Shown: one piece after another, positions 1 through 52,825 of the stretch
Position numbering within the stretch: position 1 is the stretch's first letter
Layout: each line of letters opens with the position of its first letter
Assembly (NCBI RefSeq): GCF_029639405.1
Contig: NZ_CP121274.1
Span: forward strand, 3,286,001 to 3,350,000
Direction of reading: 5' to 3'
Length of the DNA: 64,000 nt
Origin: Microbacterium proteolyticum
GTDB taxonomy: Bacteria; Actinomycetota; Actinomycetes; Actinomycetales; Microbacteriaceae
The notes under the pieces: model-generated
The model's database searches: none
What the model was told of the DNA's origin: nothing
Seen by the model: the letters and a program-made list of their open reading frames with translations, nothing else
Program-made: the position numbers and the translations under genes

Positions 1-1858
1 TGTCGAGCGAGTACGTCGGCGACGGGGTGTTCGAGTCGGCGATCGCCCGCGACAGCGAGACGCCCGAGGAGTACGGGTAGTTCGCGCTCGTGGTGTAGCC
101 GTCGATGACCCACTTGACCCGCCCGTCGACCACCGTCGGGTACGGGTCGCTGTCGAGCGTCAGGTACGGTGCGACCTTCTGGACGCGCTCCTTCGGGTTG
201 CGGTCGTAGAGGATCTGGGAGTCCTCGTTGACGTAGTCCGAGAACAGGATCTGCTCCGACTGGAACTTCAGCGCGTAGATGAGGCGGTTGAAGACGTTGC
301 CGACACTCGGTCCCCCGTCGCCGCGGAAGGTCGTGCGCGTCTCCGTGCCGCCGTCGGCACCGAGGGGGTAGTCGAGCTCGATGTCCTCGCCGCCCTCGGG
401 CCCGCCGACGATCGAGTACGGCGGCGACTGCTCGCCGAAGTACACGCGCGGCTCGTACTTGAGGTCGGTGAGGAAGCCGGTGCCGGGGATGGCCTGCTCC
501 AGGAACACCGGGTCGCCGTCATCCGTGCGCTCGTTGCCCGCGGCCGCGACCATGCCGTAGCCGTGCGTGTAGACGAGCGTGGTGTTCTGCCAGGACGCGG
601 CGTCGCCGAGCTGACCGATGTTGAGCTCGCGCAGCGACACCACGGCATCCTGCGTCTGACCGTTGATCGTGTAGCGGTCGACGTCGAGCGGGTTGTTGAA
701 CTGGTAGTACGCGCGGTACTGCTGCAGCTGACGGACGGTCGGACCGATGATCGCCGGGTCCATGATGCGCAGCTGGGCCGTGGACGAGGCGTCGTTGCGC
801 AGCTGACCGGCCTCGGCGGTCGTGGCGGCGGCGAAGTTCTCCTTCTCGATGCCGTCGATGCCGTACGCGGCCTTCGTGCTGTCGATGTTGCGCTGGTAGT
901 ACTGGCTCTCGAGGGCGAGCTGGTTCGGGCGCACCTGGAAGGTCGTGACCGCCCACGGGATCGCCGCGCCGACGACGATGGCCGAGACCACGAGCAGCGC
1001 CGTCGCGATGAGGGGGTAGCGCCAGCGCCCGATGACCGCGGTCACGAAGAACGCGAGCGCGACGATGACGGCCGCGATCGCGAGGATCGTCTGACCGGGG
1101 ATGACGGCGTTCACGCCCACGTATCCCGGGCCGGTGATGCGGTCCTCCTGGTTGACCAGCGTCGTGTAACGGTCCAGCCACAGGCTCCCGCCCTGCAGGA
1201 GCAGGTACAGGCCGGCGAGGATCGCGAGCTGGATGCGTGCGGCCTTGGAGATGCGCAGCTCGCGCTGCCCCACCCGCACCGAGCCGTACAGGTACGACAC
1301 CACGGCGGTGAGCAGGAGGCACACGAGCACGACCGCCGAGGCGAAGCCGAGGACCGTCGTGTAGAACGGCAGCGCGAACAGGTAGAAGCCGGTGTCGAGA
1401 CCGAACTGCGGGTCGGTGGTCGAGGTCGCGACGCCGTTGAACCACAGCCACGTGGTCTCCCACTGCGCGGAGGCGGCGAAGCCGGCGAAGAAGCCGAAGA
1501 AAATCGGGATCCCCCACATCGCGAGTCGACGCAGCGGCTCCACGACCTCCTGGTAACGGTCGAGCTGCGAGCTCAGCCGGGCGTAGACGGGGCGCAGTCG
1601 GTACGCGAGCTGGATGACGCCCCACACCGGGATCGCCATCGCGAGGAAACCGATGACGAACATCACCGTCCGCGCGATCCACTGCGTCGTGAGCACCTCG
1701 GTGAAACCGAGCTGCGCGAACCACAGCCAGTCGGAGTAGAGGTTCGCGAAGACGAAGAAAGCCACGACCAGGGCGGCGATGACCGCCAGCGAGATCGAGA
1801 TGATCCGTCGTGAACGGTTCGGGGGCGTGGCCTGGTTCGGCGCTGAGGTCGTGGTCAC
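1..1858 (-). CDS. UPF0182 family membrane protein (3' part outside window)
   Basis: About 619 codons are visible, from a GTG start at 1858 to the window edge; the family usually runs to about 950-1000 residues, so the C-terminal third is missing. The first 300 residues hold several long hydrophobic segments, beginning just after the Arg-rich N-terminus, which fits the multi-span N-terminal membrane region of UPF0182. The remainder is a hydrophilic domain that would lie outside the membrane. The function of the family is unknown. Its place next to the PDZ-Lon protease matches the Rv3193c-Rv3194c pair of M. tuberculosis. A TAGGAT box six bases upstream of the GTG argues for a leaderless transcript and supports this start. 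Confidence 0.85.
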   Translation of the reverse strand, partial: MTTTSAPNQATPPNRSRRIISISLAVIAALVVAFFVFANLYSDWLWFAQLGFTEVLTTQWIARTVMFVIGFLAMAIPVWGVIQLAYRLRPVYARLSSQLDRYQEVVEPLRRLAMWGIPIFFGFFAGFAASAQWETTWLWFNGVATSTTDPQFGLDTGFYLFALPFYTTVLGFASAVVLVCLLLTAVVSYLYGSVRVGQRELRISKAARIQLAILAGLYLLLQGGSLWLDRYTTLVNQEDRITGPGYVGVNAVIPGQTILAIAAVIVALAFFVTAVIGRWRYPLIATALLVVSAIVVGAAIPWAVTTFQVRPNQLALESQYYQRNIDSTKAAYGIDGIEKENFAAATTAEAGQLRNDASSTAQLRIMDPAIIGPTVRQLQQYRAYYQFNNPLDVDRYTINGQTQDAVVSLRELNIGQLGDAASWQNTTLVYTHGYGMVAAAGNERTDDGDPVFLEQAIPGTGFLTDLKYEPRVYFGEQSPPYSIVGGPEGGEDIELDYPLGADGGTETRTTFRGDGGPSVGNVFNRLIYALKFQSEQILFSDYVNEDSQILYDRNPKERVQKVAPYLTLDSDPYPTVVDGRVKWVIDGYTTSANYPYSSGVSLSRAIADSNTPSPTYSLD

Positions 1859-1864
1859 CCGTCC

Positions 1865-1870
1865 ATCCTA
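1865..1870 (-). promoter_or_regulatory. -10 box of UPF0182 gene (leaderless)
   Basis: TAGGAT on the minus strand ends six bases before the GTG at 1858, the spacing expected when transcription starts at the start codon. Confidence 0.5.
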
Positions 1871-1901
1871 GGCGGCCACTTCTGGGGGTATGCCGTGGAT
1901 A

Positions 1902-3041
1902 CTACGATCCCGAGGCGGGTGTCCCGTCGCAGGTCGGAAGGGCGTCCAGATCGCCTCCGTCGCGGATCGCCTCGAGCGCGGTGAGGGAATCCTGCAGGGT
2001 GGAGACGGAGAACACGCGGATGCCGTCGGGCACGTGTCCCACCACCTCGTCGCAGTTGGACTGCGGCGCGAGGAACCACGTGGCACCGGCGTCGCGGGCC
2101 CCGTAGAGCTTCTGGCGGATGCCGCCGATGCCGCCCACGTTGCCGTCCGCATCGATGGTGCCCGTGCCGGCGATGTGCTGACCGCCGGTCAGGTCGCCCG
2201 TGGACATCTTGTCGATGATGCCCAGGGCGAACATCATGCCGGCACTCGGTCCGCCGACGTTGTTGATCTGGATCTTGACGTCGACCGGGAGGTCGAAGGT
2301 GAGTGTCAGTCCGACCCCGAGGAGCCACTGCTGCTGGCCGTCGACATCGGTCAGGCGCGGCGTGACGGACACCGAGCTCTGCGCGCCGCCGCGGTCGATG
2401 CCGAGCGTCACCGGTGCACCACCGCCGGCCTGCACGGCCGACCGGATGTCGGTCACGCTCGCGACGGGCTGGCCGTTCAGCGAGGTGATGACGTCGCCGA
2501 GCTCGAGCACCCCCGCCGACGCGCCCGAATCGTCGATGGTCCCCACGACCACGTCCTGCGGAACGGTGTAGCCGAGCTGGCGGAGAGCGGCGGCGGAGGC
2601 CTCGAGCTGCGAGTCGCTCATCAGAGCGGCGTTCTCGGTGTTGCGCTGCTCGGTCGACTGTCCGGACGGGAAGATGCGATCGAGCGGAACCACCGCGCGG
2701 GACGGGTCGAACCACGCCTGCGCGAGTTCGATCCAGCTGGGGGTGCGCTCGCGATTGCCGTTGATCTGGACGGTCAGCAGGTCGAGTCGGCCCTCCGACG
2801 GCGTGTCCTTCTCGTCGGGCACGGTGATGAGCGGCACCTCGTTGCCGTCGGCGTCGGTCGACGTGCCGAGGGTGTTCAGGACGGGCCCCGGCTGCTGGAT
2901 GACGTACGGCGACGGCAGGAACGACAGCACGAGCAGCACGAGCACCGACACGGTGAGGGACCACACGCCGACGACGGTCGATCGGCTCCGCTGCCGCCGA
3001 GGGACGGGCACGACGGAGACGTTCTCGTCGAACAGGGTCAC
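1902..3041 (-). CDS. PDZ domain-containing Lon-like serine protease (YlbL type)
   Basis: This 379-residue protein has a short cytoplasmic N-terminus, one membrane helix at about residues 23-43, a PDZ domain at about 150-225 and a Lon-type protease domain at about 230-345. The catalytic dyad is visible: Ser266 in GGPSAGMM and Lys311 in GGIRQKLYGA. It is therefore predicted to be an active membrane-anchored peptidase facing outward, like B. subtilis YlbL or Rv3194c. The GTG start lies a few bases after an AAAGG-AGGA purine stretch. It sits 44 bases upstream of the UPF0182 gene on the same strand, although that gene has its own -10 box. Substrates cannot be inferred from sequence. Confidence 0.88.
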   Translation of the reverse strand: MTLFDENVSVVPVPRRQRSRSTVVGVWSLTVSVLVLLVLSFLPSPYVIQQPGPVLNTLGTSTDADGNEVPLITVPDEKDTPSEGRLDLLTVQINGNRERTPSWIELAQAWFDPSRAVVPLDRIFPSGQSTEQRNTENAALMSDSQLEASAAALRQLGYTVPQDVVVGTIDDSGASAGVLELGDVITSLNGQPVASVTDIRSAVQAGGGAPVTLGIDRGGAQSSVSVTPRLTDVDGQQQWLLGVGLTLTFDLPVDVKIQINNVGGPSAGMMFALGIIDKMSTGDLTGGQHIAGTGTIDADGNVGGIGGIRQKLYGARDAGATWFLAPQSNCDEVVGHVPDGIRVFSVSTLQDSLTALEAIRDGGDLDALPTCDGTPASGS

Positions 3042-3166
3042 GGGTCCTACCTTTGCCGGGTCGTTCGCGCGCGGCGTAAGCGGCGAGGGGCCGAGCCGAG
3101 AGAAGCGAGGAATCGTGCGACTAGCGTAGATGCCGTTCCCCTTGACCCGGCTGAAAGGCGGCTGAA

Positions 3167-4579
3167 GTGGCAGACGACGACCGGAACCCCGAGGAGGAGT
3201 TCCAGGAGCTCATGCGGCGCCTGATGTCGGGCGACACCTCCGGCCTGGATGCGGCGGAGCTCTCGCGTCTGTCCGGGATGCAGATCGACCCGGCGATGAT
3301 GCAGGCGGTCATGAACCAGCTGCAGGGCGCCTTCGCGAACCCGCAGGACGGCATCGACTGGAGTCTGGCCGAGCGCCAGGCGCTGCACATCGCGAACCAG
3401 GACGGACTGGGTGTTTCTGCCGGAGAGCGCACCGACCTCGACCAGGCGTTCTCGCTCGCCGCCCTGTGGCTCGGCGAGGCGACCACCATCAGCGACCTTC
3501 CGCGCCCGCCGAAGGCCGTCACCCGCGGCGCGTGGGTCAGCGCCACTCTCCCGGTGTGGCAGGAGTTGGCCGAACCGGTGGCCACGAGCATCGCGGACGC
3601 GCTCACCGACGCGCTCGGGCAGCAGGCCCCCGACGACATGCAGGATCTGATCGCGGGAGCCGGGCGGCTCATGCGGACCGTCGGCGGCTCGCTCTTCGCA
3701 ACCCAGCTCGGCCACGTCGTCGGTCGCCTGTCGACGGAGGTCGTGGGCGGCGGCGACGTCGGCATCCCCGTGATGCCCGACGGCGATGCGGCGATCCTTC
3801 CGCAGAACTTCGCGGACTTCGGGCGCGACCTCGAGATCCCCGACGACCAGCTGGCGCTGTACCTCGCGACGCGCGAACTCGCGCACGCCCGCCTGTTCCG
3901 TCACGCCCGCTGGCTCCGCCTGCACGTCATCTCGCAGGTGCGGGAATTCGCCCACGGCATCCGCGTCGACACCGATGGACTGGAAGAGCTCGCGTCGCGC
4001 TTCGACCCGTCGCAGCCCGACGAGCTGCGCAGCGCACTCGAGAGCGGCGCCCTCCTGCCGCAGCGGTCGGAGGAGCAGACCGCTGCGCTCACGCGTCTCG
4101 AGAACCTCCTGGCCACGATCGAAGGATGGGTCGACGTCGTCACCGACGACGCCACGTCGCGTCTCCCCTCCGCCGCCCGCATCGCCGAGGCCGTGCGCCG
4201 TCGCCGCGCCGTCGGCGGTCCCGCCGAGCAGGCGCTGGGTTCGCTCGTCGGGCTCGAGCTGCGCCCCCGTCGCATGCGCGAAGCCGCGGCGATGTGGCGA
4301 GCGGTGACCGACGCCGTCGGCGTCGCCGGGCGCGACGCGCTGTGGGACTACCCCGACCTCATGCCGACGGCGGAGGACATCGACGACCCCGCAGGTCTCG
4401 TGGCACGGCTCACGGCCGCGTCGCGCGGCGAGACGGCCCCCTCGGATGCCATGGACGACGCGCTCGCGCAGCTCATCGCCGAAGAGACGGCGGCCTCGTC
4501 CGGCACCGGCGACGAGGGCGACCCGGCCGCCGACGACGACGGCGAGGAGCCGACGCCCGGCGACCAGCGCCCGGTCTGA
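3167..4579 (+). CDS. DUF2342 zinc-metalloprotease-like protein
   Basis: This 470-residue protein belongs to the actinobacterial DUF2342 family (TIGR03624 type, often named zinc-dependent metalloprotease or putative hydrolase) and corresponds in context to Rv3195. The segment that would hold HExxH reads R236-E-L-A-H240, so the first histidine is Arg. Only one His and the Glu remain, which makes classical zincin activity doubtful. The N-terminal half is rich in helices, and the last 50 residues are acidic and low complexity (Asp/Glu/Gly/Pro). The GTG start follows a GAAAGGCGG ribosome site. The gene diverges from the PDZ-Lon gene and is followed by a strong hairpin. Confidence 0.82.
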   Translation: MADDDRNPEEEFQELMRRLMSGDTSGLDAAELSRLSGMQIDPAMMQAVMNQLQGAFANPQDGIDWSLAERQALHIANQDGLGVSAGERTDLDQAFSLAALWLGEATTISDLPRPPKAVTRGAWVSATLPVWQELAEPVATSIADALTDALGQQAPDDMQDLIAGAGRLMRTVGGSLFATQLGHVVGRLSTEVVGGGDVGIPVMPDGDAAILPQNFADFGRDLEIPDDQLALYLATRELAHARLFRHARWLRLHVISQVREFAHGIRVDTDGLEELASRFDPSQPDELRSALESGALLPQRSEEQTAALTRLENLLATIEGWVDVVTDDATSRLPSAARIAEAVRRRRAVGGPAEQALGSLVGLELRPRRMREAAAMWRAVTDAVGVAGRDALWDYPDLMPTAEDIDDPAGLVARLTAASRGETAPSDAMDDALAQLIAEETAASSGTGDEGDPAADDDGEEPTPGDQRPV

Positions 4580-22575: not shown

Positions 22576-24353
22576 CGTTCACCCCACCCGCGTCGTTCGC
22601 GACGCGGCCGACGCTGCGCGGATCCTTCGGCATGTCGGCATCCACGCACTGGACGGCCACGGCCACCGCGCAGTCCGTCCTGGAGCGGGGCGGCAATGCG
22701 TTCGACGCGGCCGTCGCGGCTGCCTTCGTGCTGCACGTCGTCGAGCCGCACCTCAACGGCCCCGGCGGCGACCTCGTCGCGATCGTGCGCCCCGCCGGCA
22801 GCGACGAACCGCTCGTGCTGATGGGACAGGGACCCGCACCGGCCGGCGCGTCCGTGGAGGCGTTCCGCGCGCGCGGCCTCGACCTCGTGCCCGGCGCGGG
22901 CGGGCTCGCGGCCGCGGTGCCCGGCGCCGTCGACGCGTGGCTGCTGCTTTTGCGCGATCACGGCACGTGGGACCTCGCCGACGTGCTCGACTACGCGATC
23001 GGCTACGCGCGCGACGGGCACCCACTCGTCGCCGGCGCCGCCGTGACGATCGGCCGGGTCGCCGACCTGTTCCGCGACCACTGGACGACCTCGGCCGACC
23101 TGTGGATGCCGACCGGCGCGGCGCCCGCGCCGAACACGATCGTCCGCAACCCGGCGTACGCCGGCGTGCTGGAAGGTCTCCTGGCGACGGGATCTCCTGC
23201 CGACGGTCGGGAGGCTCGGATCGACGCGGCCCGACGCGAGTGGATGACGACAGTGCTGCCGCGGGCCGCCGCGTTCGCGCGCATCCCCCATCGACACTCG
23301 GACGGCGGCGATCATCCCGGCGTGCTCGACGACGCCGATCTCGCGGGGTGGAGCGCGTCGTTCGAGCCGGCGGTCTCGGCGACGTTCCGCGGATGGCGGG
23401 TCTTCAAGGCCGGCGTGTGGACCCAGGGTCCCGCCCTCCTGCAGACGCTGCGGATGCTCGACCCGCTCGACGACGAGCTCCTCGACCCGTCGACGGCGGC
23501 CGGTGCCCACACCCTCCTCGAGGTGCAGAAGCTCGCGTACGCCGACCGCGACGCGTGGTTCGGCGATGCCGACGTCGCTGCCGACGTCGACGCCCTGCTC
23601 GCCGACGAGTACCTCGCCGAACGCGCCGCACTGATCGACGACGCCGCCAGCCCCGCCCTACGCCCCGGTTCTCCGGACGGTCGCCCGCCCGTCCTGCCGC
23701 CGCTCCGGACGGATGCCGGAGTCACGAGTGCCGGCACCGGCGAGCCGACGGTGGATCGGAGCGGGCAGACCCGCGGCGACACCTGCCACCTCGACGTCGT
23801 CGACCGTTGGGGCAACGTCGTGTCCGCGACGCCCTCCGGCGGATGGCTGCAGTCCTCCCCCGCGGTGCCCGACCTGGGATTCTGCCTCGGGACGCGCCTG
23901 CAGGCCACGTGGGTGATGACCGGGCACCCGGCATCCCTCATTCCGGGTCGGAGGCCCCGCACCACGCTCACCCCGACGATGCTGACCCGCGGCGAGGAGG
24001 TCATCGCGATGGGGTCGCCCGGCGGCGACCAGCAGGACGCGTGGCAACTGCCCGTCCTCCTCCGCATGCTCATCGGGGAATACGAGCCGCAGCAGGCGAT
24101 CGACGCCCCCTCGCTGCACACGACCGGGGTACTCGATTCGTTCTGGCCGCGAACCTGGACTCCGTCCGGCGTCGTCGTCGAGAACCGCATCGGCGACGAG
24201 GTCGTCGCGGAACTCGAACGCCGCGGGCATGCCGTCCGGCGGGCCGGCGAGTGGGCGCTCGGACGGGTGAGCGCCGTCGGCCGTGACTCCTCCGGGCTGC
24301 TGTGGGCCGCCGCGAACCCGCGCGGGATGCAGGGGTACGCCGCCGGCCGGTGA
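22572..24353 (+). CDS. ggt: Gamma-glutamyltransferase family protein
   Basis: This 593-residue Ntn-hydrolase has the large and small subunit regions of gamma-glutamyltransferases. The expected self-cleavage site and nucleophile is the Thr of GDTCHLDVVD at about residue 399, where most relatives have TTH. The early GGNAFDAAVAAAF and late RPRTTLTPTM and GSPGGD motifs fit the family. No signal peptide is seen, so it probably works in the cytoplasm, unlike classical secreted GGT. It would cleave gamma-glutamyl or related acylated peptides. Its ATG overlaps the pepP stop codon. Confidence 0.87.
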   Translation: MTFTPPASFATRPTLRGSFGMSASTHWTATATAQSVLERGGNAFDAAVAAAFVLHVVEPHLNGPGGDLVAIVRPAGSDEPLVLMGQGPAPAGASVEAFRARGLDLVPGAGGLAAAVPGAVDAWLLLLRDHGTWDLADVLDYAIGYARDGHPLVAGAAVTIGRVADLFRDHWTTSADLWMPTGAAPAPNTIVRNPAYAGVLEGLLATGSPADGREARIDAARREWMTTVLPRAAAFARIPHRHSDGGDHPGVLDDADLAGWSASFEPAVSATFRGWRVFKAGVWTQGPALLQTLRMLDPLDDELLDPSTAAGAHTLLEVQKLAYADRDAWFGDADVAADVDALLADEYLAERAALIDDAASPALRPGSPDGRPPVLPPLRTDAGVTSAGTGEPTVDRSGQTRGDTCHLDVVDRWGNVVSATPSGGWLQSSPAVPDLGFCLGTRLQATWVMTGHPASLIPGRRPRTTLTPTMLTRGEEVIAMGSPGGDQQDAWQLPVLLRMLIGEYEPQQAIDAPSLHTTGVLDSFWPRTWTPSGVVVENRIGDEVVAELERRGHAVRRAGEWALGRVSAVGRDSSGLLWAAANPRGMQGYAAGR

Positions 24354-24396
24354 CGAGGTTCTCCACAGGGTGAAAACACGGCGGTGCGCGTTTGCC

Positions 24397-24402
24397 TACG
24401 AT
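24397..24402 (+). promoter_or_regulatory. -10 box of the 24.4-27.0 kb cassette (leaderless)
   Basis: TACGAT ends seven bases before the ATG at 24410 and is the only promoter apparent for the three tightly overlapping genes that follow. Confidence 0.55.
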
Positions 24403-24409
24403 CCCGCGC

Positions 24410-24769
24410 ATGTCGTACTCGGTGGATCCCCCGCAACTGATCGGTCTCGGCGAGCGCATGCGTCGCTCGTTCGACGAGCTCGACGAGGCCGCCCGCGGGC
24501 TGCGGAGAGCCGCGGATGCCGCGGCCCTCGGACTCGTGCGCGCCCTGCCCGCCCACGGCGCCCTCGTCGAGCTGACCGCCGGGCGCATCGATCTGGCGCA
24601 CCGCATCGTCGCGCGCGGCCGAGCCGTGCTCTCGGCCCTCCAGACCGTCGTGCTCGCCTACCTCACCGCGGATGAGGAGATGGCCGGCGCGGCCGAGGTC
24701 GCAGCATCCGATGCCGCCGCCGTGACGAATCCGTTCGACCCGATCGTGTTCGGACGGAGACGTCTGTGA
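24410..24769 (+). CDS. Small helical protein with YxxxD motif (EspC/WXG100-like)
   Basis: This 119-residue protein is predicted to be two long Ala-rich amphipathic helices, the architecture of WXG100 and EspC-type type VII secretion partners. A YLTAD sequence at residues about 83-87 matches the YxxxD/E export motif that follows the helix pair in such proteins. No WXG turn is evident. It is followed by a hydrolase gene through a GTGA overlap, so the two proteins may form a secreted or chaperoned complex. This assignment rests on architecture and context, not on a recognised domain. Confidence 0.65.
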   Translation: MSYSVDPPQLIGLGERMRRSFDELDEAARGLRRAADAAALGLVRALPAHGALVELTAGRIDLAHRIVARGRAVLSALQTVVLAYLTADEEMAGAAEVAASDAAAVTNPFDPIVFGRRRL

Positions 24770-26493
24770 GCATGGCGATCGCGCTCCCCGATCCCCCGGC
24801 GGAGCCGGAACGTCTGCGCGAGAACGCGGCTCGTCTGCGCACGACGTCGGAGCGATACGAACTCCTGGTCACGCAGGCGCTCTTCGCCTGGAGCCTCCTC
24901 CCCGGGGCCTACCGCGCCCCGGAAGCCGACCTCCTGCACGCCTCACTCGCCACGACGCATCCTGCAGCCGCAGAGATCAGCGACGGTCTCATCTCCGCAT
25001 GTCGTGCGCTGGAGCGGTTCGCGGACGAGATCGACGACCTCGCGCGCCGTCGCACCCTGCTCGCCGACAGACGGGATGCCGGTCCTCCGGCGGATCTCTG
25101 GGACGAGAGCGCCGACGGACCGGCCGCGGTGCTGAACGATCGCCGCCGAGACGAGTGGGCCAGCGGGCTCGCTCGCGAAGCCGCCGATCTCGACGAGGCG
25201 TACGACGACGCGAGCCGACGCTGCGCGTCCGCCCTGCGCGCGATACCGGACGTCGCCTGGACATCGCTTGCTGCATGGAGTGGTCCCGAGGCGTCGGGGC
25301 CCGTGGGCTCCATCTCCGACGCGGCGGGCCTCGCTCTGCTCGAACGGCTGTCCGCGGAACGCGATCCCGCACGACTGCTCGTCGAGCACCCCGAATGGGC
25401 GGGCATCATTCGCGGCACCGGTCCCGCCGCGGTCGCCGAGTGGTGGTCCCGCCTCGATCGACGGACGGCCGACGCTCTCGCGACGACAGCGCCCTCGCTC
25501 GTCGGCAACCTCGACGGACTGCCGATCGCCGAACGCGTCGAGGTCAACCGTGGTCGCGCGAGCGAATATCTGCGCGAGTTGCGCACACGACGACAGGCTC
25601 TCGAGGCTCTGCGCGCCCCTCGCTCCCGAGCGAACGCACTCGAGGTCCTCGATCGCCGGACGGAACGCGCGCGCCTCGACCGCGAGATCGCGTACTTCGA
25701 CGCCGTCGCGAACGGGACGAAGCAGCTTTACGCGTGGGATCCGGAGCACGGCTCATTGATCGAGATGGCGGGCGATCCGTCCACGGCGAAGGCCGCCCTC
25801 TTCGTCGTTCCCGGGACGAACGCGAAAGCGGAAGCGTTCATGTCCGAGCAGCCGATCACCCGATTCGCCGACTGGCAGGTGAGATCGGGCGGCGCATCCG
25901 TCGTCGCGTTCACCGTGATGACTGGGCCGATGCCGCAGTTGGACAAGAACCTCCTGCATACCGGCCCAGAGTGGAATTCGATGGCGGTAGACCGCGGACC
26001 CGAGTACGCCCGCTTCATACAGGGAATCGGAAGCGTGCAGCCCGACCTCTGGACGATGAGCTACGAGCACTCCTACGGAGGAGCCGTCGGCAGCGAGGCG
26101 GAGAAGAACGGCGGCATCGTCGATGCGCGATTCCTCGCCGCGAGCGTCGGCGCCGTCGGCCCCTTCGAGCCGAACCCGGACACGACCTACTTCGCGGCGC
26201 AAGCGCCGGACGACATCAACAGGTATTACGCGGGGCTCGGTCTGGGGCCAGCAGGTTTCACCGTCGCGCCCGAATCGATCCCTGGGGTGCACATCGTCGA
26301 CTCGGGCATACGGGGGTTCGATATGGGGGCAGTGATCCCGTACGCGATGACCGGCAATCCCGGGTACCTTCCCGCGATCGTCGACCAAAGCGTCGACCAC
26401 CACAACGCACTGATGAGCGACGACGAGTCCGTGAATGGGAAGGTCCTAGACCGGGTCCGGTCAGTCCTCGACGATGGGGGAAGAGCATCGTGA
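24766..26493 (+). CDS. Alpha/beta hydrolase (DUF1023-like) with helical N-terminal domain
   Basis: This 575-residue protein has a helical N-terminal region (to about residue 320) that includes AWSLLPGAYRAPEAD, and a C-terminal alpha/beta hydrolase of the DUF1023 type. The nucleophile elbow reads EHSYGG with Ser436; the usual first Gly is Glu. Candidate acid and base are Asp near 511 (HIVDSG) and His near 545 (SVDHHN). It may cleave lipid or ester bonds outside the cell if exported by a type VII system together with its upstream neighbour. An ATG two codons after the GTG is an alternative start. The 3' half uses more A/T-ending codons than neighbouring genes. Confidence 0.72.
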   Translation: MSMAIALPDPPAEPERLRENAARLRTTSERYELLVTQALFAWSLLPGAYRAPEADLLHASLATTHPAAAEISDGLISACRALERFADEIDDLARRRTLLADRRDAGPPADLWDESADGPAAVLNDRRRDEWASGLAREAADLDEAYDDASRRCASALRAIPDVAWTSLAAWSGPEASGPVGSISDAAGLALLERLSAERDPARLLVEHPEWAGIIRGTGPAAVAEWWSRLDRRTADALATTAPSLVGNLDGLPIAERVEVNRGRASEYLRELRTRRQALEALRAPRSRANALEVLDRRTERARLDREIAYFDAVANGTKQLYAWDPEHGSLIEMAGDPSTAKAALFVVPGTNAKAEAFMSEQPITRFADWQVRSGGASVVAFTVMTGPMPQLDKNLLHTGPEWNSMAVDRGPEYARFIQGIGSVQPDLWTMSYEHSYGGAVGSEAEKNGGIVDARFLAASVGAVGPFEPNPDTTYFAAQAPDDINRYYAGLGLGPAGFTVAPESIPGVHIVDSGIRGFDMGAVIPYAMTGNPGYLPAIVDQSVDHHNALMSDDESVNGKVLDRVRSVLDDGGRAS

Positions 26494-26984
26494 GATGCGC
26501 CATCCTTCCCCCACTGATTGTCGCCTCGTTGCTTATGCTCGCGAGTTGCGCGAGCGCCAAGCTCCCGCCCTACTCGCAAGTTCGGGACGAAACACTGGCC
26601 GTCCTCGACGCCGTTGCGAAGTCGGTTCCCGAAGCCACGGAGATCGCCCGTACGCCTGAATTCGATCCGTACCCATGCAACGAGAGGCTGACATTTGGAA
26701 CGCAGTCGGGTGCGTTCTTCACAGGGCAGTGGACAATCTATGTAGACGCGGACTTCGACGTTCCGGACTTCGTCGAACGCGTCCCCCAGATATTGGGAGA
26801 AGGGTGGGAGGTAGACCCGCTTGGTATTCCGCTGAGCTTCGCGCAGGTTCGCATGATCCGCGAGTCACCGCACATGTCATTGACCGTCGAAGAGTCGGTC
26901 CAGGGCGATCGCAAGGCCGTCGAGCTGCTGGCGATGTCGCAATGTGGTGTCCCACCGCTCGGCGACGACACGCCGACGAACTAG
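26490..26984 (+). CDS. Putative lipoprotein, possible immunity partner of the upstream hydrolase
   Basis: This 164-residue protein starts with a signal peptide ending in a lipobox, LASC, with Cys20 as the lipidation site. The mature part is small, acidic and has two further cysteines (PYPCNER and MSQCGVP). I recognise no family. The GTG start overlaps the hydrolase stop (GTGA), indicating tight coupling. Codon choice is clearly more AT-rich than the core genes around it, which suggests recent acquisition. A membrane-anchored immunity protein for the hydrolase is one explanation; an accessory binding lipoprotein is another. Confidence 0.68.
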   Translation: MRCAILPPLIVASLLMLASCASAKLPPYSQVRDETLAVLDAVAKSVPEATEIARTPEFDPYPCNERLTFGTQSGAFFTGQWTIYVDADFDVPDFVERVPQILGEGWEVDPLGIPLSFAQVRMIRESPHMSLTVEESVQGDRKAVELLAMSQCGVPPLGDDTPTN

Positions 26985-27667
26985 CTCCCCGCCACCCCCG
27001 CCACCCCCGCCACGAACTCCCCCACGACCCCGGCCAGCCCGGCGCCGATCTCCTCGGCGGGCCGACGCGCGCCCTTGACCTCGAAGGAGTGGTTGGCTCC
27101 CTCGACCCACTGCACACGCGCGTCGAGGCAGGTTGCGACGACCGCGTCGAACTGCTCGCGGGGTGCGATGAACGGATCGTTCTCCCCCTCGACGAACAAC
27201 TGCGGCACGGTGATCGCGGGCAGGTGGTCGGCGCGAGGCTTGTCGGGACGACCCGGGGGGTGCAGCGGATACCCGAGGTAGACGAGCGCGCGGGGCGACA
27301 ACGCGCCCTCCGCGGCGGCGACCGAGGCCATCCGGCCGCCGTACGACTTCCCCGCGGCGACGAACGACCCGATCCCCTGCTCGCCGAGCCACGCCTGCAC
27401 ACCCGCCCACGTGGCGACGGCATGGGCGGCGGGGCCCGGCATCCGTCGACCGGCCTCCACGTACGGGAACACGAAGCGCAGAACGGAGAAGCCGTCGCCG
27501 GCAAGCGCCGACGCGAGGCCCTCGAGGAAGGGGTGGTCCATTCCCGCACCGGCTCCGTGCGCCAGCGCGACCGTCGCCCGAGCGTCGGCGACCTCCGCCC
27601 AGAGACCGGAGACCTCCGCCTCACCCGTCGGCAACGCGACGGGGATGCGAACGTCGCGCGCGCTCAC
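26981..27667 (-). CDS. Alpha/beta hydrolase (KANL3/Tex30-type, YheT-like)
   Basis: This 228-residue single-domain hydrolase carries the nucleophile elbow AGKSYGGRM, the oxyanion-region HGAGAGMDHP, the acid in ENDPFI and a late His in ANHSFEV. These are hallmarks of the small KANL3/Tex30 hydrolases of unknown substrate. The C-terminus repeats AGVAGVAG, encoded by a short tandem DNA repeat. Its GTG overlaps the stop of the upstream stress-type gene. Its TAG stop and the TAG stop of the convergent lipoprotein gene are formed by the same CTAG at 26981-26984. Confidence 0.8.
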   Translation of the reverse strand: MSARDVRIPVALPTGEAEVSGLWAEVADARATVALAHGAGAGMDHPFLEGLASALAGDGFSVLRFVFPYVEAGRRMPGPAAHAVATWAGVQAWLGEQGIGSFVAAGKSYGGRMASVAAAEGALSPRALVYLGYPLHPPGRPDKPRADHLPAITVPQLFVEGENDPFIAPREQFDAVVATCLDARVQWVEGANHSFEVKGARRPAEEIGAGLAGVVGEFVAGVAGVAGS

Positions 27668-47242: not shown

Positions 47243-48292
47243 TCATGACGACGGCGTCTCCGGGTGCACGCGCGCCTCGGTGCTGGCCGGCGCCGTCGTC
47301 GACGACGCGGGCTGCTCCTTGGTGCGCCGCAGCGAGAAGCGCTTCTGCCGCGGGTCGAATGCGTCGCGCAGGCCGTCGCCGACGAAGTTCACCAGTACGG
47401 CGAGCACCACGATGAACACGGCCGGCCACCAGAACAGCCACGGGCGCGTCTGGAACGCGGACTGGTTGTCGGAGATGATCAGACCGAGCGACACGTCCGG
47501 CGGCCGCACACCGAGCTGCAGGTAGCTCAGCGCGGTCTCGAGGAGGATCGCGGAGGCGGCCAGCAGCGTCGCCGCCACGATCACCACGCCGATGGCGTTG
47601 GGCAGGATGTGCTTGAAGATGATGCGGGCGTCGCTCGCGCCGGCCACGCGGGCGGCTTCCACGAACTCGCGCTCGCGCAGCGACAGGAACTCGGCACGCA
47701 CGAGGCGGGCGATCGTCGTCCACGAGACCATCGCGAGGAAGAACGCCAGCGGGATCACACCGAGGCCACCGGTCGCACGACCGACGACGGCGCCGATCAC
47801 GATGATCGGGATGACGATGAAGACATCGGTGATGCGCATCAGAACCGAATCGATCCACCCGCGGTAGTAGCCCGCGAGGGCGCCGATGACGGTGCCGACG
47901 GCCGTGCCCACGACGCTGATGATGATCATCACCAGGATCGAGTTCTGGATGCCGCGCATCGTCATCGCGAAGTAGTCGATGCCGATGCGATCCTGACCGA
48001 ACGGGTGCTCGCCGAACGAGAACGGCCACAGCGTGAGGGTCGGCGCTCCCCCGTCGTTCTGCGGGTTGAGCGAGGTGTAGTCGTGCTTCCACCACCCGGG
48101 GATGGGCCCCAGGCCGATCGCCGAGATCGAGAAGATCGCGAGGAGCACGAACAGGATGCCGGAGACGACGGCGACCTTGTTCGACAGGAATCGACGCAGG
48201 ATGAGTCGTCCCTGGCTGACGCCGACGGTGTGGCGCTCATCGGAGGGCGGCGGAGCGTCGACGTTGGCCGGCTCGGGGAGCATCTGGGTCAT
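47243..48292 (-). CDS. Peptide ABC transporter permease, DppC/OppC type
   Basis: This 349-residue protein has an OppC-type N-terminal helix (about 40-60), an extracytoplasmic loop and a five-helix permease core. The EAA-type coupling loop EAARVAGASDARIIFKHILP would contact the ATPase. A Ser/Thr/Pro-rich tail follows the core. A GGAGG site precedes the ATG. It lies 31 bases after the DppB-type gene and is the second permease subunit. Confidence 0.9.
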   Translation of the reverse strand: MTQMLPEPANVDAPPPSDERHTVGVSQGRLILRRFLSNKVAVVSGILFVLLAIFSISAIGLGPIPGWWKHDYTSLNPQNDGGAPTLTLWPFSFGEHPFGQDRIGIDYFAMTMRGIQNSILVMIIISVVGTAVGTVIGALAGYYRGWIDSVLMRITDVFIVIPIIVIGAVVGRATGGLGVIPLAFFLAMVSWTTIARLVRAEFLSLREREFVEAARVAGASDARIIFKHILPNAIGVVIVAATLLAASAILLETALSYLQLGVRPPDVSLGLIISDNQSAFQTRPWLFWWPAVFIVVLAVLVNFVGDGLRDAFDPRQKRFSLRRTKEQPASSTTAPASTEARVHPETPSS

Positions 48293-48323
48293 CGGAGGAC
48301 CTCCGGGATTCGGACGGCGGCGA

Positions 48324-49868
48324 TCATGCGACCACTCGCACGCGGGGGTCGAGCGTGGCGTAGGCGAGATCTGCCAGGAAGTTGAACACGATCGCCGTGA
48401 TGGCGATGACGAGGAAGTACCCCATCACGGGGTTCACATCGACGCGCTGGATCGAGGTGACGAACAGTGCGCCCATTCCCGAGATCGCGAAGACCCTCTC
48501 GGTGATGACGGCGCCACCCAGGAGCGCGCCGACGTCGGTGGCGACGAGCGTCACGATCGGGATGAGCATGTTCCGCAGGCCGTGGCGCAGGATGACCGTG
48601 CGCTCGGGCAGGCCCTTCGCGCGTGCCGTGCGGATGTAGTCCTGGTTCATCACCTCAAGCATTCCGGCGCGGGCGTACCGCGTGTAGCCGGCGAAGGAGA
48701 TGAGCAGCAGCGAGATCGTCGGCAGCAGGAGATGGGTGAACGTGTCGATTCCGGTGATCCACATGTCGCCGGTGAACCCGGGGGTGCCGGCACCGACCGT
48801 GGCGATCGGTCGGCCGTTGATGCGCGGGTTGCTCACGTACTGCGGCCACGACTGCATGTAGCGATCGAGCACCACGAGGGCACCCGACAGGAAGGCGACC
48901 AGCCCGCCGATGCGCGCGACCATCCCGCGGTCGGGGGCGCCGAGGACGTATCCCGAGACGAGACCGACCGCCACGGCGACGACACCGAGGATGATGATCG
49001 TCGCGAAGGTCGAGATGTCGAACAGACCCTGCAGGGCGAAGTAGCAGATGTAGGCGATCGCACCGTTGAGCGCCGCGACGAGGAGCGCCCGACGGTTTCG
49101 CAGACCGGCGATGAGGGCGGTCGTGATGACGACGATGCCCGCGATCAGCAGAAGGAGCCCGACCGGGCCGAGGCCCGGGTTCCGGAACCAGTCGGTGAGG
49201 TTGAAGTACACCAGCAGGGCGACGGTCGCGAGGCCCGCAGAGCCCGCGACGATGAGACGCCGGCGGGTGTCTCCACCGATCATGGCCTGCCACACGACGG
49301 CCGCGATCACGCCCAGCAGGACGATGAGCCAGATCGGGATGGCCGTGGCCGATTCCAGGAAGTTGTTGAAGCCCAGGGCCATGAACTCCTTCAGGAGCAC
49401 GGCGACCAGGAAAGAGGGCAGCGAGAAGAGGAAGAAGCTCAGCAGCGTGATGCCGAAGTCGAACCCGCTGTACTGGCGGAGGGCGGAGACGACGCCCACC
49501 ACGATGCCGAGGACGATGGCCAGCACGAACGACGCTGTGACGAGCTGGAGGGTCGACCCGATGGCGGTCGGGAGGATGTCGAGGACGGCGGCGTTGGAGA
49601 TCGTGAGACCGAGGTTGCACGTGCCGGCGAATGGGATGAGGCAGCCGGCGGCACCGCCGAGCCAGAGGAAGTAACGGAGGGGAACGGGGACGTTCAGGTC
49701 GAGCGCCGCGACACGCGCGGCGATGAGCTGATCGCGGTTGGCGGCGGAGCTGTCGCGCAGGTCCTGCAACGGGTCGCCGGAGTTGGCGGCCAGCACGTAC
49801 ATGATGAACGACGCTGCCAGGAGGACCAGGATCGAGACGGCGATGCGCCTGAGGATGAATCCGACCAT
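48324..49868 (-). CDS. Peptide ABC transporter permease, DppB/OppB type, enlarged
   Basis: This 514-residue protein has the DppB N-terminal region and the C-terminal core with the coupling loop YIRTARAKGLPERTVILRHG. Typical DppB proteins have about 310-340 residues; here about 170 extra residues with four or more added hydrophobic segments (about 175-345) sit between the third and fourth core helices. The insertion keeps the frame and the family motifs, so it looks like a lineage variant and not a broken gene. The ATG follows an AAAGAAG site. Confidence 0.88.
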   Translation of the reverse strand: MVGFILRRIAVSILVLLAASFIMYVLAANSGDPLQDLRDSSAANRDQLIAARVAALDLNVPVPLRYFLWLGGAAGCLIPFAGTCNLGLTISNAAVLDILPTAIGSTLQLVTASFVLAIVLGIVVGVVSALRQYSGFDFGITLLSFFLFSLPSFLVAVLLKEFMALGFNNFLESATAIPIWLIVLLGVIAAVVWQAMIGGDTRRRLIVAGSAGLATVALLVYFNLTDWFRNPGLGPVGLLLLIAGIVVITTALIAGLRNRRALLVAALNGAIAYICYFALQGLFDISTFATIIILGVVAVAVGLVSGYVLGAPDRGMVARIGGLVAFLSGALVVLDRYMQSWPQYVSNPRINGRPIATVGAGTPGFTGDMWITGIDTFTHLLLPTISLLLISFAGYTRYARAGMLEVMNQDYIRTARAKGLPERTVILRHGLRNMLIPIVTLVATDVGALLGGAVITERVFAISGMGALFVTSIQRVDVNPVMGYFLVIAITAIVFNFLADLAYATLDPRVRVVA

Positions 49869-49968
49869 CGCGGGAGGACTTCTTTCGATCGGGTGACGGA
49901 CGCCTGTGGGCGCCCAGGAAAGGATAGTCGCGCATGCACCGGGGTGGGGTGCACCGCGCGCAGACGAA

Positions 49969-50004
49969 GTGAGGCGCCGGAGCCGAGCGACTCCGGCGCC
50001 TCAC
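49969..50004 (-). terminator. Intercistronic hairpin between binding-protein and permease genes
   Basis: A perfect 14-bp stem (GTGAGGCGCCGGAG with its complement) encloses an 8-base loop and starts 19 bases after the binding-protein stop. It could partially terminate or stabilise mRNA, which would give more binding protein than permease. A TATCCT box at 49921-49926 may restart transcription. Confidence 0.6.
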
Positions 50005-50022
50005 GAGGGATTCAGCGGGTCA

Positions 50023-51816
50023 TCAACCCGCGAGCGTCCACTCCTGCGCGTTCCACACGATGCCCGTCTGGCCACCGAAGTAGTCGATGCCCTGGACGGT
50101 GCCGTTGTCGGCGAAGAGACCGGGGAGCTGGAACAGCGGCAGACCGTAGAAGTCCTTGGCCGTCTCTGCGTCGATCTTCACCTTGATGTCAGCGAGCTGC
50201 GCCGGGTCGGTCGTGACCTGGCTCTCGTCGACGAGCGTGTCGACGGTGGCGTTGCTGTAGTTGTTGTAGTTTCCGCCGCCGCCGCTCTTGAAGATCTGCG
50301 GGAGGGCCGCGTTACCGGCGCCGGGCGAGATCCATCCGAAGATGGACACGTCGTAGCTGCCGCTGCCCAGGAGCGAGCTCCAGTCGGGCGAACCGGCGTC
50401 GACGATGTTGAAGCCCGCCTGCTGCGCCGACTGCTGGATGGCGCGGAAGCTGTCGACACGGTTGGGGTTGTTGGTGTTGTAGAGGATGCGGACCGTCGGG
50501 GTCGCACCGGCGAGCAGCGCCTTGGCACCCTCGATGTCGGGCTCGGTGAACGCGTCGTAGCCACTGGCCGCGACGGCCGTGGTGTACTGATCGCCGTCCG
50601 TCGGCAGGAAGATCTGCGAGTTGAGCACCTCGGCGTCGGGGTTGACCGGCTTGATGATCGAGTCGAGGATCTGCTGACGCGGGATGGTCTTCAGGAAGGC
50701 CTCGCGGACGTTCGCGTCGGCGAACACGCCACCGAAGCTCAGGTCGACGTGGTCGTACGACAGCTGGCTGCCCGAGTGGACCGTGGCGTTGGCGTTCTCG
50801 AGCGCCGTCAGGGTGTCGGCGGAGGCCTGCGGCTGGATGGCCTGCACCTCGCCGTTCTGGAGGGCCGTGACCTGCGCGTTGGCGTCACCGATGAAGCGGA
50901 TGATCAGCTGGTCGTACTTGGGCGACATGCTGCCCTTGTAGTTGGGGTTCTTGCCCAGCGTGATGCTCTGCTCGGGGGTGAAGTCGGTCACGATGAACGG
51001 ACCGCTCGCGACGAGGAGGCTCTGGTCGGTCGGCATGGCCGTGACGTCGTAGCCGGTGTTCCAGAAGTCAGCCGCGGCCTTCAGCGTCGCGTTGGGGGCG
51101 ACGGGCGCTTCGGGGTTGCCCTTGGGGGTGTCCTTCAGGAGCGTGATGAAGTCGGCCTCGGAGACGCCGGCCTTCTCGGCCAGCACGTGGGCGGGCTTGC
51201 CGATCGGGTTCACGAGCTCGAAGTCCACGAACGGCTTCGAGTAGACGAGGGTCATCGACATGTTGTCGTCGCTGATCTCGGGGAACGCGGTGGTGTCCAG
51301 ACCCGCGGTGCTGCCGGCGAGCGTGAAGTACTGGGTGCCGCCGTTGGTGACCTCGCCAGAGGCGGGGTCGAGCTTGGCGTCGTCGTAGTAGCCCGAGTTG
51401 ATGGCCCAGTTGACGAGCATGTCGTCGGCGTTGATGGGCTCGCCGTCGGACCAGGTGAGGCCCTCGTTGATCGTGTACTTGACCGTCAGCGGGTCGTCCG
51501 AGATCTTCTCGTACGTTCCGAAGTCGGTGTTGTCGAGGACGCTGAAGTCCTTGTCGAGGCGCTGGAAGCCACCGAGGCCGAGGCCGCCGCTGACACCGGT
51601 GAGGTAGCCCACCATGCCGTTGGTGTCCAGGTTCGCCTCGGGGGTGTCGCCGTTGAACGAGGTGAACGCGTTGGTCGTGGCGATGGTGATGGTACCGCCG
51701 CTGCTCGCGCCCGCGTCGGGCGTGGCGGTGGTGGTGCAGCCGGCGAGCGCGAGCGCCGCAACGGCGACACCTGCTCCCGCCGCCAGGGCGCGCGTGCGCC
51801 GAGTCTTTTCAGACAC
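50023..51816 (-). CDS. Peptide ABC transporter substrate-binding lipoprotein
   Basis: This 597-residue SBP_bac_5-family protein has a signal peptide ending in the lipobox LAGC and a two-lobed binding fold with family motifs such as LTWSDGEPINADD and the late NYNNYSNATVD. It would capture oligopeptides at the cell surface for the downstream permeases. The GTG at 51816 was chosen because an AGGAGG site lies four bases upstream and the signal peptide begins there. A complete promoter with a dyad in its spacer lies about 70 bases upstream. Confidence 0.92.
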   Translation of the reverse strand: MSEKTRRTRALAAGAGVAVAALALAGCTTTATPDAGASSGGTITIATTNAFTSFNGDTPEANLDTNGMVGYLTGVSGGLGLGGFQRLDKDFSVLDNTDFGTYEKISDDPLTVKYTINEGLTWSDGEPINADDMLVNWAINSGYYDDAKLDPASGEVTNGGTQYFTLAGSTAGLDTTAFPEISDDNMSMTLVYSKPFVDFELVNPIGKPAHVLAEKAGVSEADFITLLKDTPKGNPEAPVAPNATLKAAADFWNTGYDVTAMPTDQSLLVASGPFIVTDFTPEQSITLGKNPNYKGSMSPKYDQLIIRFIGDANAQVTALQNGEVQAIQPQASADTLTALENANATVHSGSQLSYDHVDLSFGGVFADANVREAFLKTIPRQQILDSIIKPVNPDAEVLNSQIFLPTDGDQYTTAVAASGYDAFTEPDIEGAKALLAGATPTVRILYNTNNPNRVDSFRAIQQSAQQAGFNIVDAGSPDWSSLLGSGSYDVSIFGWISPGAGNAALPQIFKSGGGGNYNNYSNATVDTLVDESQVTTDPAQLADIKVKIDAETAKDFYGLPLFQLPGLFADNGTVQGIDYFGGQTGIVWNAQEWTLAG

Positions 51817-51885
51817 TTTGCCTCCTGTGCAAGGTTTGACGGCACCCCGGAACTGCCGGGACAGCGGGGGGCCGTAGATACGGAA

Positions 51886-51914
51886 ACGATAGGTAAACGC
51901 TCTGCGTTGGTCAA
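51886..51914 (-). promoter_or_regulatory. Promoter of peptide ABC operon with a dyad in the spacer
   Basis: TTGACC (51909-51914) and TATCGT (51886-51891) are separated by 17 bases. The spacer begins with the dyad AACGC-AGA-GCGTT (51896-51908), well placed for a repressor. A hairpin-prone leader of about 62 bases follows. Confidence 0.65.
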
Positions 51915-51978
51915 AACTCCTGGGGAAACCGTTACATACCTTTAATTCGAAGCCCGTCCCATGTGGCAATCTGACAAC

Positions 51979-52809: not shown

Positions 52810-52825
52810 GCATGTCCCTGTCGGG

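What the first reader, a model, noticed from the sequence alone, without database searches (positions are those of the whole stretch)
24410..26984. Candidate type VII-type secreted hydrolase with helical partner and immunity-like lipoprotein
The sequence shows three genes joined by GTGA overlaps under one leaderless promoter: a two-helix protein with a YLTAD (YxxxD) motif, a hydrolase with a helical N-terminal half and a DUF1023-type domain (Ser436 in EHSYGG), and a lipoprotein with an LASC lipobox. Known T7SS lipase systems (for example TslA-TilA of Staphylococcus) pair a helical targeting region, small partners and a lipoprotein immunity factor. That this cassette is such a system is inference. 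Its 3' part has AT-richer codons and lacks the GGATGCC motif for more than 2 kb, suggesting transfer. No secretion machinery is in the window.
Basis: partly seen in the sequence, partly recalled or inferred. Interest (0 to 1): 0.78.

Follow-up and report, generated by a model that had tools for sequence, protein, structure and literature searches.

The report
Swappable bacterial lipase toxin with immunity lipoprotein
Three adjacent genes of a Microbacterium-like bacterium look like a lipase-fold toxin, a small helper that would carry it to a type VII secretion machine, and an anchored lipoprotein that would protect the producer; a very close relative carries a sharply different version of just the toxin tip and the protector.

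The parts
24362..24402 (+). Conserved promoter region: TCCACAGG element (24362-24369) and TACGAT -10-like box (24397-24402) directly before the ATG (leaderless type)
   Evidence: both present in 14 of 14 orthologous cassettes looked at, the -10 box as TACGAT, TAGCAT or TAACAT; TCCACAGG not found in the stretches of the T7SS clusters searched, L041-L044 and L046
24410..24769 (+). Small helical partner (119 aa), divergent DUF6507 protein with C-terminal YxxxDxxM (YLTADEEM)
   Evidence: PF20117 E 2.6e-4, 21.9 bits against a cut-off of 25; 22 of 24 aligned family members match DUF6507 at E<=0.01; D88 and M91 invariant in 24 of 24; own-genome DUF6507 genes precede three other large proteins
24766..25830 (+). 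Hydrolase residues 1-355: helical targeting half (helices 14-43, 52-105, 119-159 and following)
   Evidence: AlphaFold2 model, whole-protein pLDDT 86.6; residues 4-101 match the N-terminus of the EccC-adjacent toxin, hhalign probability 91.9, E 7e-7; EsxA structures only at E 0.02 and below unrelated helical proteins
25720..26490 (+). Alpha/beta-hydrolase domain (residues about 319-575)
26071..26073 (+). Predicted nucleophile Ser436 (EHSYGG)
   Evidence: H435 and S436 invariant in 31 of 31; strand 429-435 then helix 438-447 in the model
26212..26214 (+). Candidate catalytic acid Asp483 (QAPDDIN); Asp482 is the alternative
   Evidence: D in 24 of 31 at each of the two positions; both follow predicted strand 474-478; inference
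26401..26403 (+). Predicted catalytic His546
   Evidence: invariant in 31 of 31
26490..26984 (+). Candidate immunity lipoprotein (164 aa), lipobox Cys20, conserved Cys63 and Cys152
25840..26985 (+). Allelic exchange block: catalytic domain plus lipoprotein, different from the closest genome found while both flanks are about 95% identical
   Evidence: sliding identity and third-codon-position identity

Best explanation
This is a polymorphic toxin-immunity cassette whose toxin is exported by a type VII secretion system. The 119-aa partner pairs with the helical N-terminal half of the 575-aa protein, and its YxxxD motif presents the pair to the EccC ATPase encoded in a distant cluster of the same chromosome. 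The C-terminal alpha/beta-hydrolase (Ser436-His546 with Asp483 or 482) would act outside the cytoplasm, most likely as an esterase or lipase on envelope lipids of competing relatives. The lipoprotein, anchored on the outer face of the membrane, would bind the hydrolase and protect the producer. Shown by computation: the three genes and their overlaps, an EccC/EccD/FHA T7SS in the genome, homology of the N-terminus to a T7SS-cluster toxin, the predicted alpha/beta-hydrolase fold, near-constant lipoprotein linkage, and exchange of catalytic domain plus lipoprotein as a unit. Inferred: secretion, pairing, substrate, toxicity, neutralisation.
Against: No experiment, no complex model. Catalytic domain and lipoprotein do not always travel together: L007 and L009 share 0.80 of the catalytic half but only 0.43 of the lipoprotein. 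The lipoprotein also shows a weak link with the partner (partial r 0.25, 57 of 2000 permutations). A partner ORF was called in only 22 of 35 loci. Four relatives carry hydrolase plus lipoprotein with a Sec-type signal and no partner, which also fits an ordinary secreted lipase with a lipoprotein helper. The EccC co-occurrence may be shared ancestry, and the genus search scored at most four candidates per genome. EccB was not found, but that search rang in no control genome. The window hydrolase matches no family in Pfam or NCBIfam at E<=1, and its best PDB sequence matches are unrelated helical proteins.
Confidence: 0.8

Rival explanations
1. A secreted lipase/esterase for nutrition or envelope remodelling, with the lipoprotein as a membrane-anchored foldase, activator or retention factor rather than an immunity protein.
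For: Four Sec-type versions keep the lipoprotein without any called T7SS partner; membrane-anchored lipase-specific helpers exist elsewhere (established knowledge, recalled).
Against: Sharp exchange of catalytic domain plus lipoprotein in near-identical genomes, orphan toxin tip with extra lipoproteins, empty sites and N-terminal homology to a T7SS-cluster toxin are typical of polymorphic toxins and unexpected for a housekeeping enzyme and its foldase.
Confidence: 0.13
2. A T7SS effector aimed at a eukaryote (plant, protist, nematode) rather than at bacteria; the lipoprotein then guards the producer's own membrane.
For: T7SS effectors of some actinomycetes act on hosts, and Microbacterium often lives with plants (both recalled, from no call).
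Against: Polymorphism between very close genomes with linked immunity-like genes fits competition among relatives better; no host-directed domain was seen in the three library scans.
Confidence: 0.05
3. The three genes are an operon by proximity only; the hydrolase is cytosolic and unrelated to T7SS.
For: The window hydrolase has no Pfam or NCBIfam match and no T7SS machinery gene lies near it.
Against: 4-nt overlaps in 12 of 12 orthologous cassettes tabulated for the partner and 11 of 12 for the lipoprotein; DUF6507 matches and YxxxD; T7SS_signal (3.3e-25) and WXG100 (2.9e-4) each in one of 31 relatives; N-terminal homology.
Confidence: 0.02

Closest known systems
TslA-TilA-TlaA1/TlaA2 of Staphylococcus aureus (T7SSb; PMC10730906, abstract and passages seen)
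   Same: T7SS helical targeting domain plus small helical partners, lipase-type (phospholipase A) toxin with Ser-Asp-His triad, lipoprotein immunity
   Different: [quoted passage not shown] here the order is forward. TilA is DUF576 and precedes tslA; here the lipoprotein matches no DUF576 and follows. One DUF6507-like partner instead of two Tla proteins. TslA-TilA was tested at the bench, this cassette was not.
LXG toxins with Lap1/Lap2 partners (T7SSb; PMC9600955, passages seen)
   Same: N-terminal helical domain, short partner with (F/Y)xxxD, C-terminal toxin, immunity genes, orphan toxin domains
   Different: no LXG, DUF3130 or DUF3958 match seen for the window proteins nor TIGR04197 for the partners; Actinomycetota; one partner gene
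Tox-ABhydrolase-3 polymorphic toxins (PMC3482391, passages seen)
   Same: alpha/beta-hydrolase toxin listed with G(S/T) and GHSxG motifs, in Actinobacteria and WXG/T7SS contexts
   Different: listed immunity is Imm66/Imm69, not a lipoprotein; here the residue before HS is Glu in 24 of 31, Gly in 6 and Ala in 1; no sequence test of homology was possible
Abhydrolase_8 (PF06259, DUF1023)
   Same: 4 of 31 relatives match, best 1.1e-6; the own-genome paralogue matches at 1.8e-13 and the family profile aligns with it over residues 12-473 (hhalign probability 96, E 3e-9)
   Different: the window protein itself reaches no reported score
LppA (PDB 2v7s) and DUF4853 (PDB 4mjg) lipoproteins
   Different: no sequence match; their function is not known from any call here

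Membership tests
T7SS substrate/effector | T7SS ATPase EccC/EssC in the genome | tested here: met
   1386-aa protein with three FtsK_SpoIIIE stretches, E 5.1e-69, next to EccD and FHA
T7SS substrate/effector | N-terminal helical targeting domain shared with cluster-encoded substrates | tested here: met
   hhalign probability 91.9, E 7e-7 to the EccC-adjacent toxin; helices 14-159; EsxA match only marginal (E 0.02, below unrelated helical proteins)
T7SS substrate/effector | YxxxD/E signal on substrate or partner | tested here: met
   D in 24 of 24, Y or F in 22 of 24 partners
T7SS substrate/effector | T7SS-dependent secretion | not testable with these tools
   needs an eccC mutant
Polymorphic toxin-immunity system | variable C-terminal toxin domain on a conserved N-terminus, exchanged with its immunity gene | tested here: met
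   identity profile and covariation; exception L007/L009
Polymorphic toxin-immunity system | orphan toxin fragments and extra immunity genes downstream | tested here: met
   fragment and two extra lipoproteins in G006, one extra lipoprotein in G058
Polymorphic toxin-immunity system | toxicity neutralised by the cognate immunity protein | not testable with these tools
   needs bench work
TslA-TilA family | N-terminal lipase, C-terminal LXG-like domain | tested here: not met
   helical half first, hydrolase last in the model
TslA-TilA family | DUF576 immunity lipoprotein | tested here: not met
   of 34 lipoproteins scanned, only DUF1455 (one member) and OpcA (one member) appear at E<=0.01
Abhydrolase_8 (DUF1023) | Pfam match over the curated cut-off | tested here: not met
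   none for the window protein at E<=1; 4 of 31 relatives match at E<=0.01
Serine alpha/beta hydrolase | fold and Ser-acid-His triad | tested here: met
   [not shown]
DUF6507 | Pfam match over the curated cut-off | tested here: not met
   window partner 21.9 bits against 25, 20.9 bits in the genome search, where 8 of 14 control genomes also ring below cut-off at E<=1; but 22 of 24 aligned relatives match at E<=0.01, best 7.7e-17
LppA/DUF4853 lipoproteins | same fold | tested here: inconclusive
   [not shown]
Tox-ABhydrolase-3 | GHSxG motif and Imm66/Imm69 | tested here: inconclusive
   EHSYGG in this protein; no Imm66/69 among the Pfam hits of the lipoproteins; family profile not available

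The most novel reading that the evidence does not exclude
The lipoprotein is a founder example of an actinobacterial class of envelope immunity proteins with the LppA/DUF4853 fold, paired with DUF1023-like T7SS hydrolases. If so, orphan actinobacterial lipoproteins of that fold, including the M. tuberculosis LppA/LppB pair, reported as recombination and positive-selection hotspots with possible antigenic variation as the suggested reason (PMC4770551, passages; PMC11056549, passages), may be immunity proteins or descend from them.
Probability: 0.2. Interest if true: 0.82.

Novelty: new variant of a known kind. Interest (0 to 1): 0.6.

Why it matters
The antibacterial T7SS toxins in the papers seen here are mostly from Bacillota. 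T7SS in Microbacteriaceae is almost absent from the held library: two papers hold 'Microbacteriaceae' and 'type VII secretion' and four hold 'Microbacterium', 'type VII secretion' and 'toxin'. A cassette spread through Microbacteriaceae with clear toxin-immunity evolution would extend lipase-type T7SS antagonism to these Actinomycetota with forward domain order. It would also suggest a role for DUF6507 as a Lap-like targeting partner and offer a testable function for a class of orphan lipoproteins. The very close genome pair with different tips is a ready natural experiment on immunity specificity.

Tried and rejected
Rejected: the GGATGCC gap as evidence of transfer by itself (only the second longest gap in the window); positive selection alone as cause of the divergent block (silent positions diverge too); plasmid carriage (one 24% match over 48% of the query among 72,556 records); defence-system membership (PADLOC only E 0.03); a promoter element shared with the T7SS clusters (TCCACAGG absent from the stretches searched). 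Led nowhere: sequence matches of the lipoproteins in PDB and Pfam; the EccB search (nothing rang in any control); the NCBIfam scan of partners (15 families, one member each, WXG100 at 0.011); the PDB sequence search with the partner profile (top rows chemotaxis receptors and other helical proteins, one ESAT-6-like at 0.005). Not run: complex prediction (no tool), so interfaces are untested.

Rows dropped or set apart. Covariation used 13 of the 15 orthologous cassettes: L013 was lost because my script did not find its flank gene, L014 because its partner frame runs into the hydrolase. L017 entered the hydrolase alignment with a start called too late. In one search, 38 ORF rows fall to 35 after removing duplicates L005=L007, L006=L009, L048=L033; the two without a lipoprotein are L025 and the disrupted L049; six of the 33 (L011, L013, L016, L017, L020, L021) failed my lipobox pattern and were counted from their aligned Cys. 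Where several downstream ORFs existed, preferred one with a lipobox, a bias towards finding it. The own-genome paralogue L044 gave no row. The lipoprotein ORF of L009 runs on into sequence antisense to the flank gene, so its tail (residues about 155-196) gives spurious matches in empty sites.

Full report
What is there. Three genes at 24410-24769, 24766-26493 and 26490-26984 on the + strand overlap by GTGA. They sit between a gamma-glutamyltranspeptidase-like gene (ending 24353) and a convergent dienelactone-hydrolase-like gene (26981-27667, minus); both names are recalled from the sequence, from no call. The window is G000:C2:3286001-3350000 of a 3.97-Mb genome. The closest named relative found is Microbacterium sp. 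CSI-V, 85% identical in the hydrolase (taxonomy).

Secretion machine. The genome has an EccC: a 1386-aa protein with three FtsK_SpoIIIE stretches at C2:768,691-772,851, 2.5 Mb away in contig coordinates. Beside it are EccD (PF19053, 7.3e-17) with a YukD-like N-terminus just below cut-off, an FHA protein and DUF6177. The same cluster holds WXG100-like genes (sub-threshold), a DUF6507 small protein (7.7e-17) and a 1233-aa toxin with a TNT C-terminus (1.1e-14). EccB was not found, but that search rang in no control, so the T7SS subtype is open. The survey of T7SS variants c-j (PMC11217815; abstract, two sections and passages seen) does not mention Microbacterium in its main text (0 occurrences).

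Targeting half. Hydrolase residues 7-92 find two own-genome proteins (E 4e-5 and 9e-5); one is the 1233-aa toxin about 12 kb from EccC. Profile comparison strengthens this: residues 4-101 against 7-104, probability 91.9, E 7e-7. The model has long helices 14-43, 52-105 and 119-159. One of 31 relatives carries the Pfam T7SS_signal domain (3.3e-25) and one WXG100 (2.9e-4). In a PDB sequence search EsxA structures appear at E 0.02-0.07, but behind unrelated helical proteins (best 0.0016), so that search is marginal.

Partner. The window partner scores 21.9 bits for DUF6507 (cut-off 25). Of 24 aligned partners, 22 match DUF6507 at E<=0.01, and D88 and M91 are invariant. The own genome holds four DUF6507 places at E<=1, three over cut-off (8 of 14 control genomes also ring at E<=1, none over cut-off). 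The other three directly precede large proteins. The motif resembles the FxxxD of Lap1 proteins (PMC9600955, passages); this is analogy, not a homology test.

Distribution in the genus. The hydrolase search finds 88 of 295 genomes at E<=0.001, most of them partial or low-identity matches. Fifteen have a full-length orthologue of at least 50% identity. The first look passed only four candidates per genome to scoring, so absences are soft.

Lipoprotein linkage. In the loci analysed, 33 of 35 distinct hydrolase loci have a lipoprotein-family ORF directly downstream; a small upstream partner was called in 22 of 35. C63 and C152 are invariant in 34 aligned lipoproteins, suggesting a disulfide outside the cell (inference). 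The member that seemed to lack a lipobox has LTGC when an upstream start is used. In the family scan 226 of 398 genomes and 59 of 85 genera match the hydrolase profile at E<=1e-10, many only in part. In the 19 best loci fetched besides the own one, a lipobox ORF follows in 19 of 19 (18 by the 4-nt overlap), and a small upstream ORF was called in 12 of 19. These 19 are the strongest hits, several from one genus, not a random sample; one (L106) is from the window's own genus.

A telling exception. In four genomes (L024, L026, L027, L028) the catalytic domain sits behind a hydrophobic Sec-type N-terminus instead of the helical half (hydropathy 1.9-2.1 against at most 1.5 in the others, except L025 at 2.6, which also lacks a lipoprotein). 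These four have no called partner, but the lipoprotein stays. Their genomes have only distant EccC matches (best E 6e-41 to 4e-39). The lipoprotein therefore goes with the catalytic domain, not with the secretion route. This also leaves room for the rival that the lipoprotein helps rather than inhibits.

The unit of exchange. Against the closest genome, nucleotide identity is 0.945-0.98 in 14 of 16 bins of 200 nt from 22,600 to 25,799 (the others 0.92 and 0.89). It falls to 0.54-0.77 in the six bins from 25,800 to 26,999 and returns to 0.96 right after the lipoprotein stop. Third-position identity at identical residues falls from 0.88-1.00 (residues 1-355) to 0.51-0.63 (residues 356-575), so silent sites changed too. 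This points to replacement by recombination rather than selection on protein sequence alone. Among 13 cassettes, lipoprotein distance correlates with residues 345-575 after controlling for both flanking genes (partial r 0.45, 0 of 2000 permutations; residues 440-575 alone 0.33, 18 of 2000). For residues 1-200 and 201-340 it is 0.17 (224 of 2000) and 0.12 (426 of 2000), and for the partner 0.25 (57 of 2000). The partner instead tracks residues 1-200 (raw r 0.92). Among the 16 pairs with flanking identity of at least 0.80, L012/L014 and L013/L020 repeat the pattern; L007/L009 breaks it, sharing 0.80 of the catalytic half but 0.43 of the lipoprotein. So the lipoprotein can also change alone.

Orphans and empty sites. 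In G006 the intact cassette is followed by a hydrolase fragment matching residues 464-564 and two more lipoproteins. The fragment's best match is the G072 hydrolase, and the next lipoprotein's best match is the G072 lipoprotein (62% and 78%). G058 has one extra lipoprotein. Of 30 flank loci, 15 hold the cassette, 13 have the two flanking genes next to each other without it (6 to about 500 nt apart), one is cut by a contig end and one is unresolved. The 13 hold no hydrolase or partner match and no lipoprotein match apart from the spurious L009 tail. Their EccC fragments are 53-58% identical to this one.

Co-occurrence. The 15 genomes with a full-length orthologue are all among the 17 whose EccC fragment is at least 93% identical over its whole 320 residues. 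The other two are G055, whose lipoprotein lies at a contig end, and G104, where no orthologue was listed. Shared ancestry could explain this, so it is supporting evidence only.

Comparison with known systems. TslA-TilA (PMC10730906) is the functional analogue; membership fails on domain order and immunity family. Zhang et al. 2012 (PMC3482391, passages) list Tox-ABhydrolase-3 in WXG contexts with Imm66/Imm69; this cassette differs by its lipoprotein. Recombination of T7SS immunity genes is known in firmicutes (PMC9484751, passages). I saw no paper describing this cassette in the listings; several of these listings were cut to the best rows, and subscription papers are mostly not held.

Noticed in passing
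window 24362-24369 and 13 orthologous loci: A TCCACAGG element (in several relatives TTATCCACAGG, close to a DnaA box as recalled) starting 48 nt before the partner ATG is conserved in 14 of 14 cassettes and absent from the T7SS-cluster stretches searched; its role is unknown.
   Followed up: partly
L043 4161-8163 (G000:C2 about 1,872,000-1,876,000): A second large protein with an N-terminus nearly identical to the EccC-linked toxin but a different C-terminus, followed by three near-identical small ORFs that look like an immunity array; no small partner gene was called before it.
   Followed up: no
L044 4041-7029 (G000:C2 about 2,934,000-2,937,000): A paralogous cassette in the same genome: DUF6507 partner, Abhydrolase_8 protein, lipoprotein-like gene.
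   Followed up: partly
L042 16672-19334 (G000:C2 about 788,700-791,300): Another DUF6507 plus 772-aa protein (sub-threshold WXG100 match) pair about 16 kb past EccC, beside a gene that resembles the DUF6177 gene of the T7SS cluster by eye.
   Followed up: no
L022 (G138) 867-3644: A relative whose hydrolase is preceded by a WXG100-like (by eye) 98-aa gene and a 93-aa gene without Pfam match instead of DUF6507, suggesting partner exchange between T7SS types.
   Followed up: no
window 48154-53132: Longest stretch without GGATGCC/GGCATCC in the window (4,978 nt); the called genes there look like an ordinary peptide-transporter operon by eye.
   Followed up: no
L014 (G234): The partner frame shifts and runs into the hydrolase frame; whether this is a sequencing error or a broken gene was not decided.
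   Followed up: no
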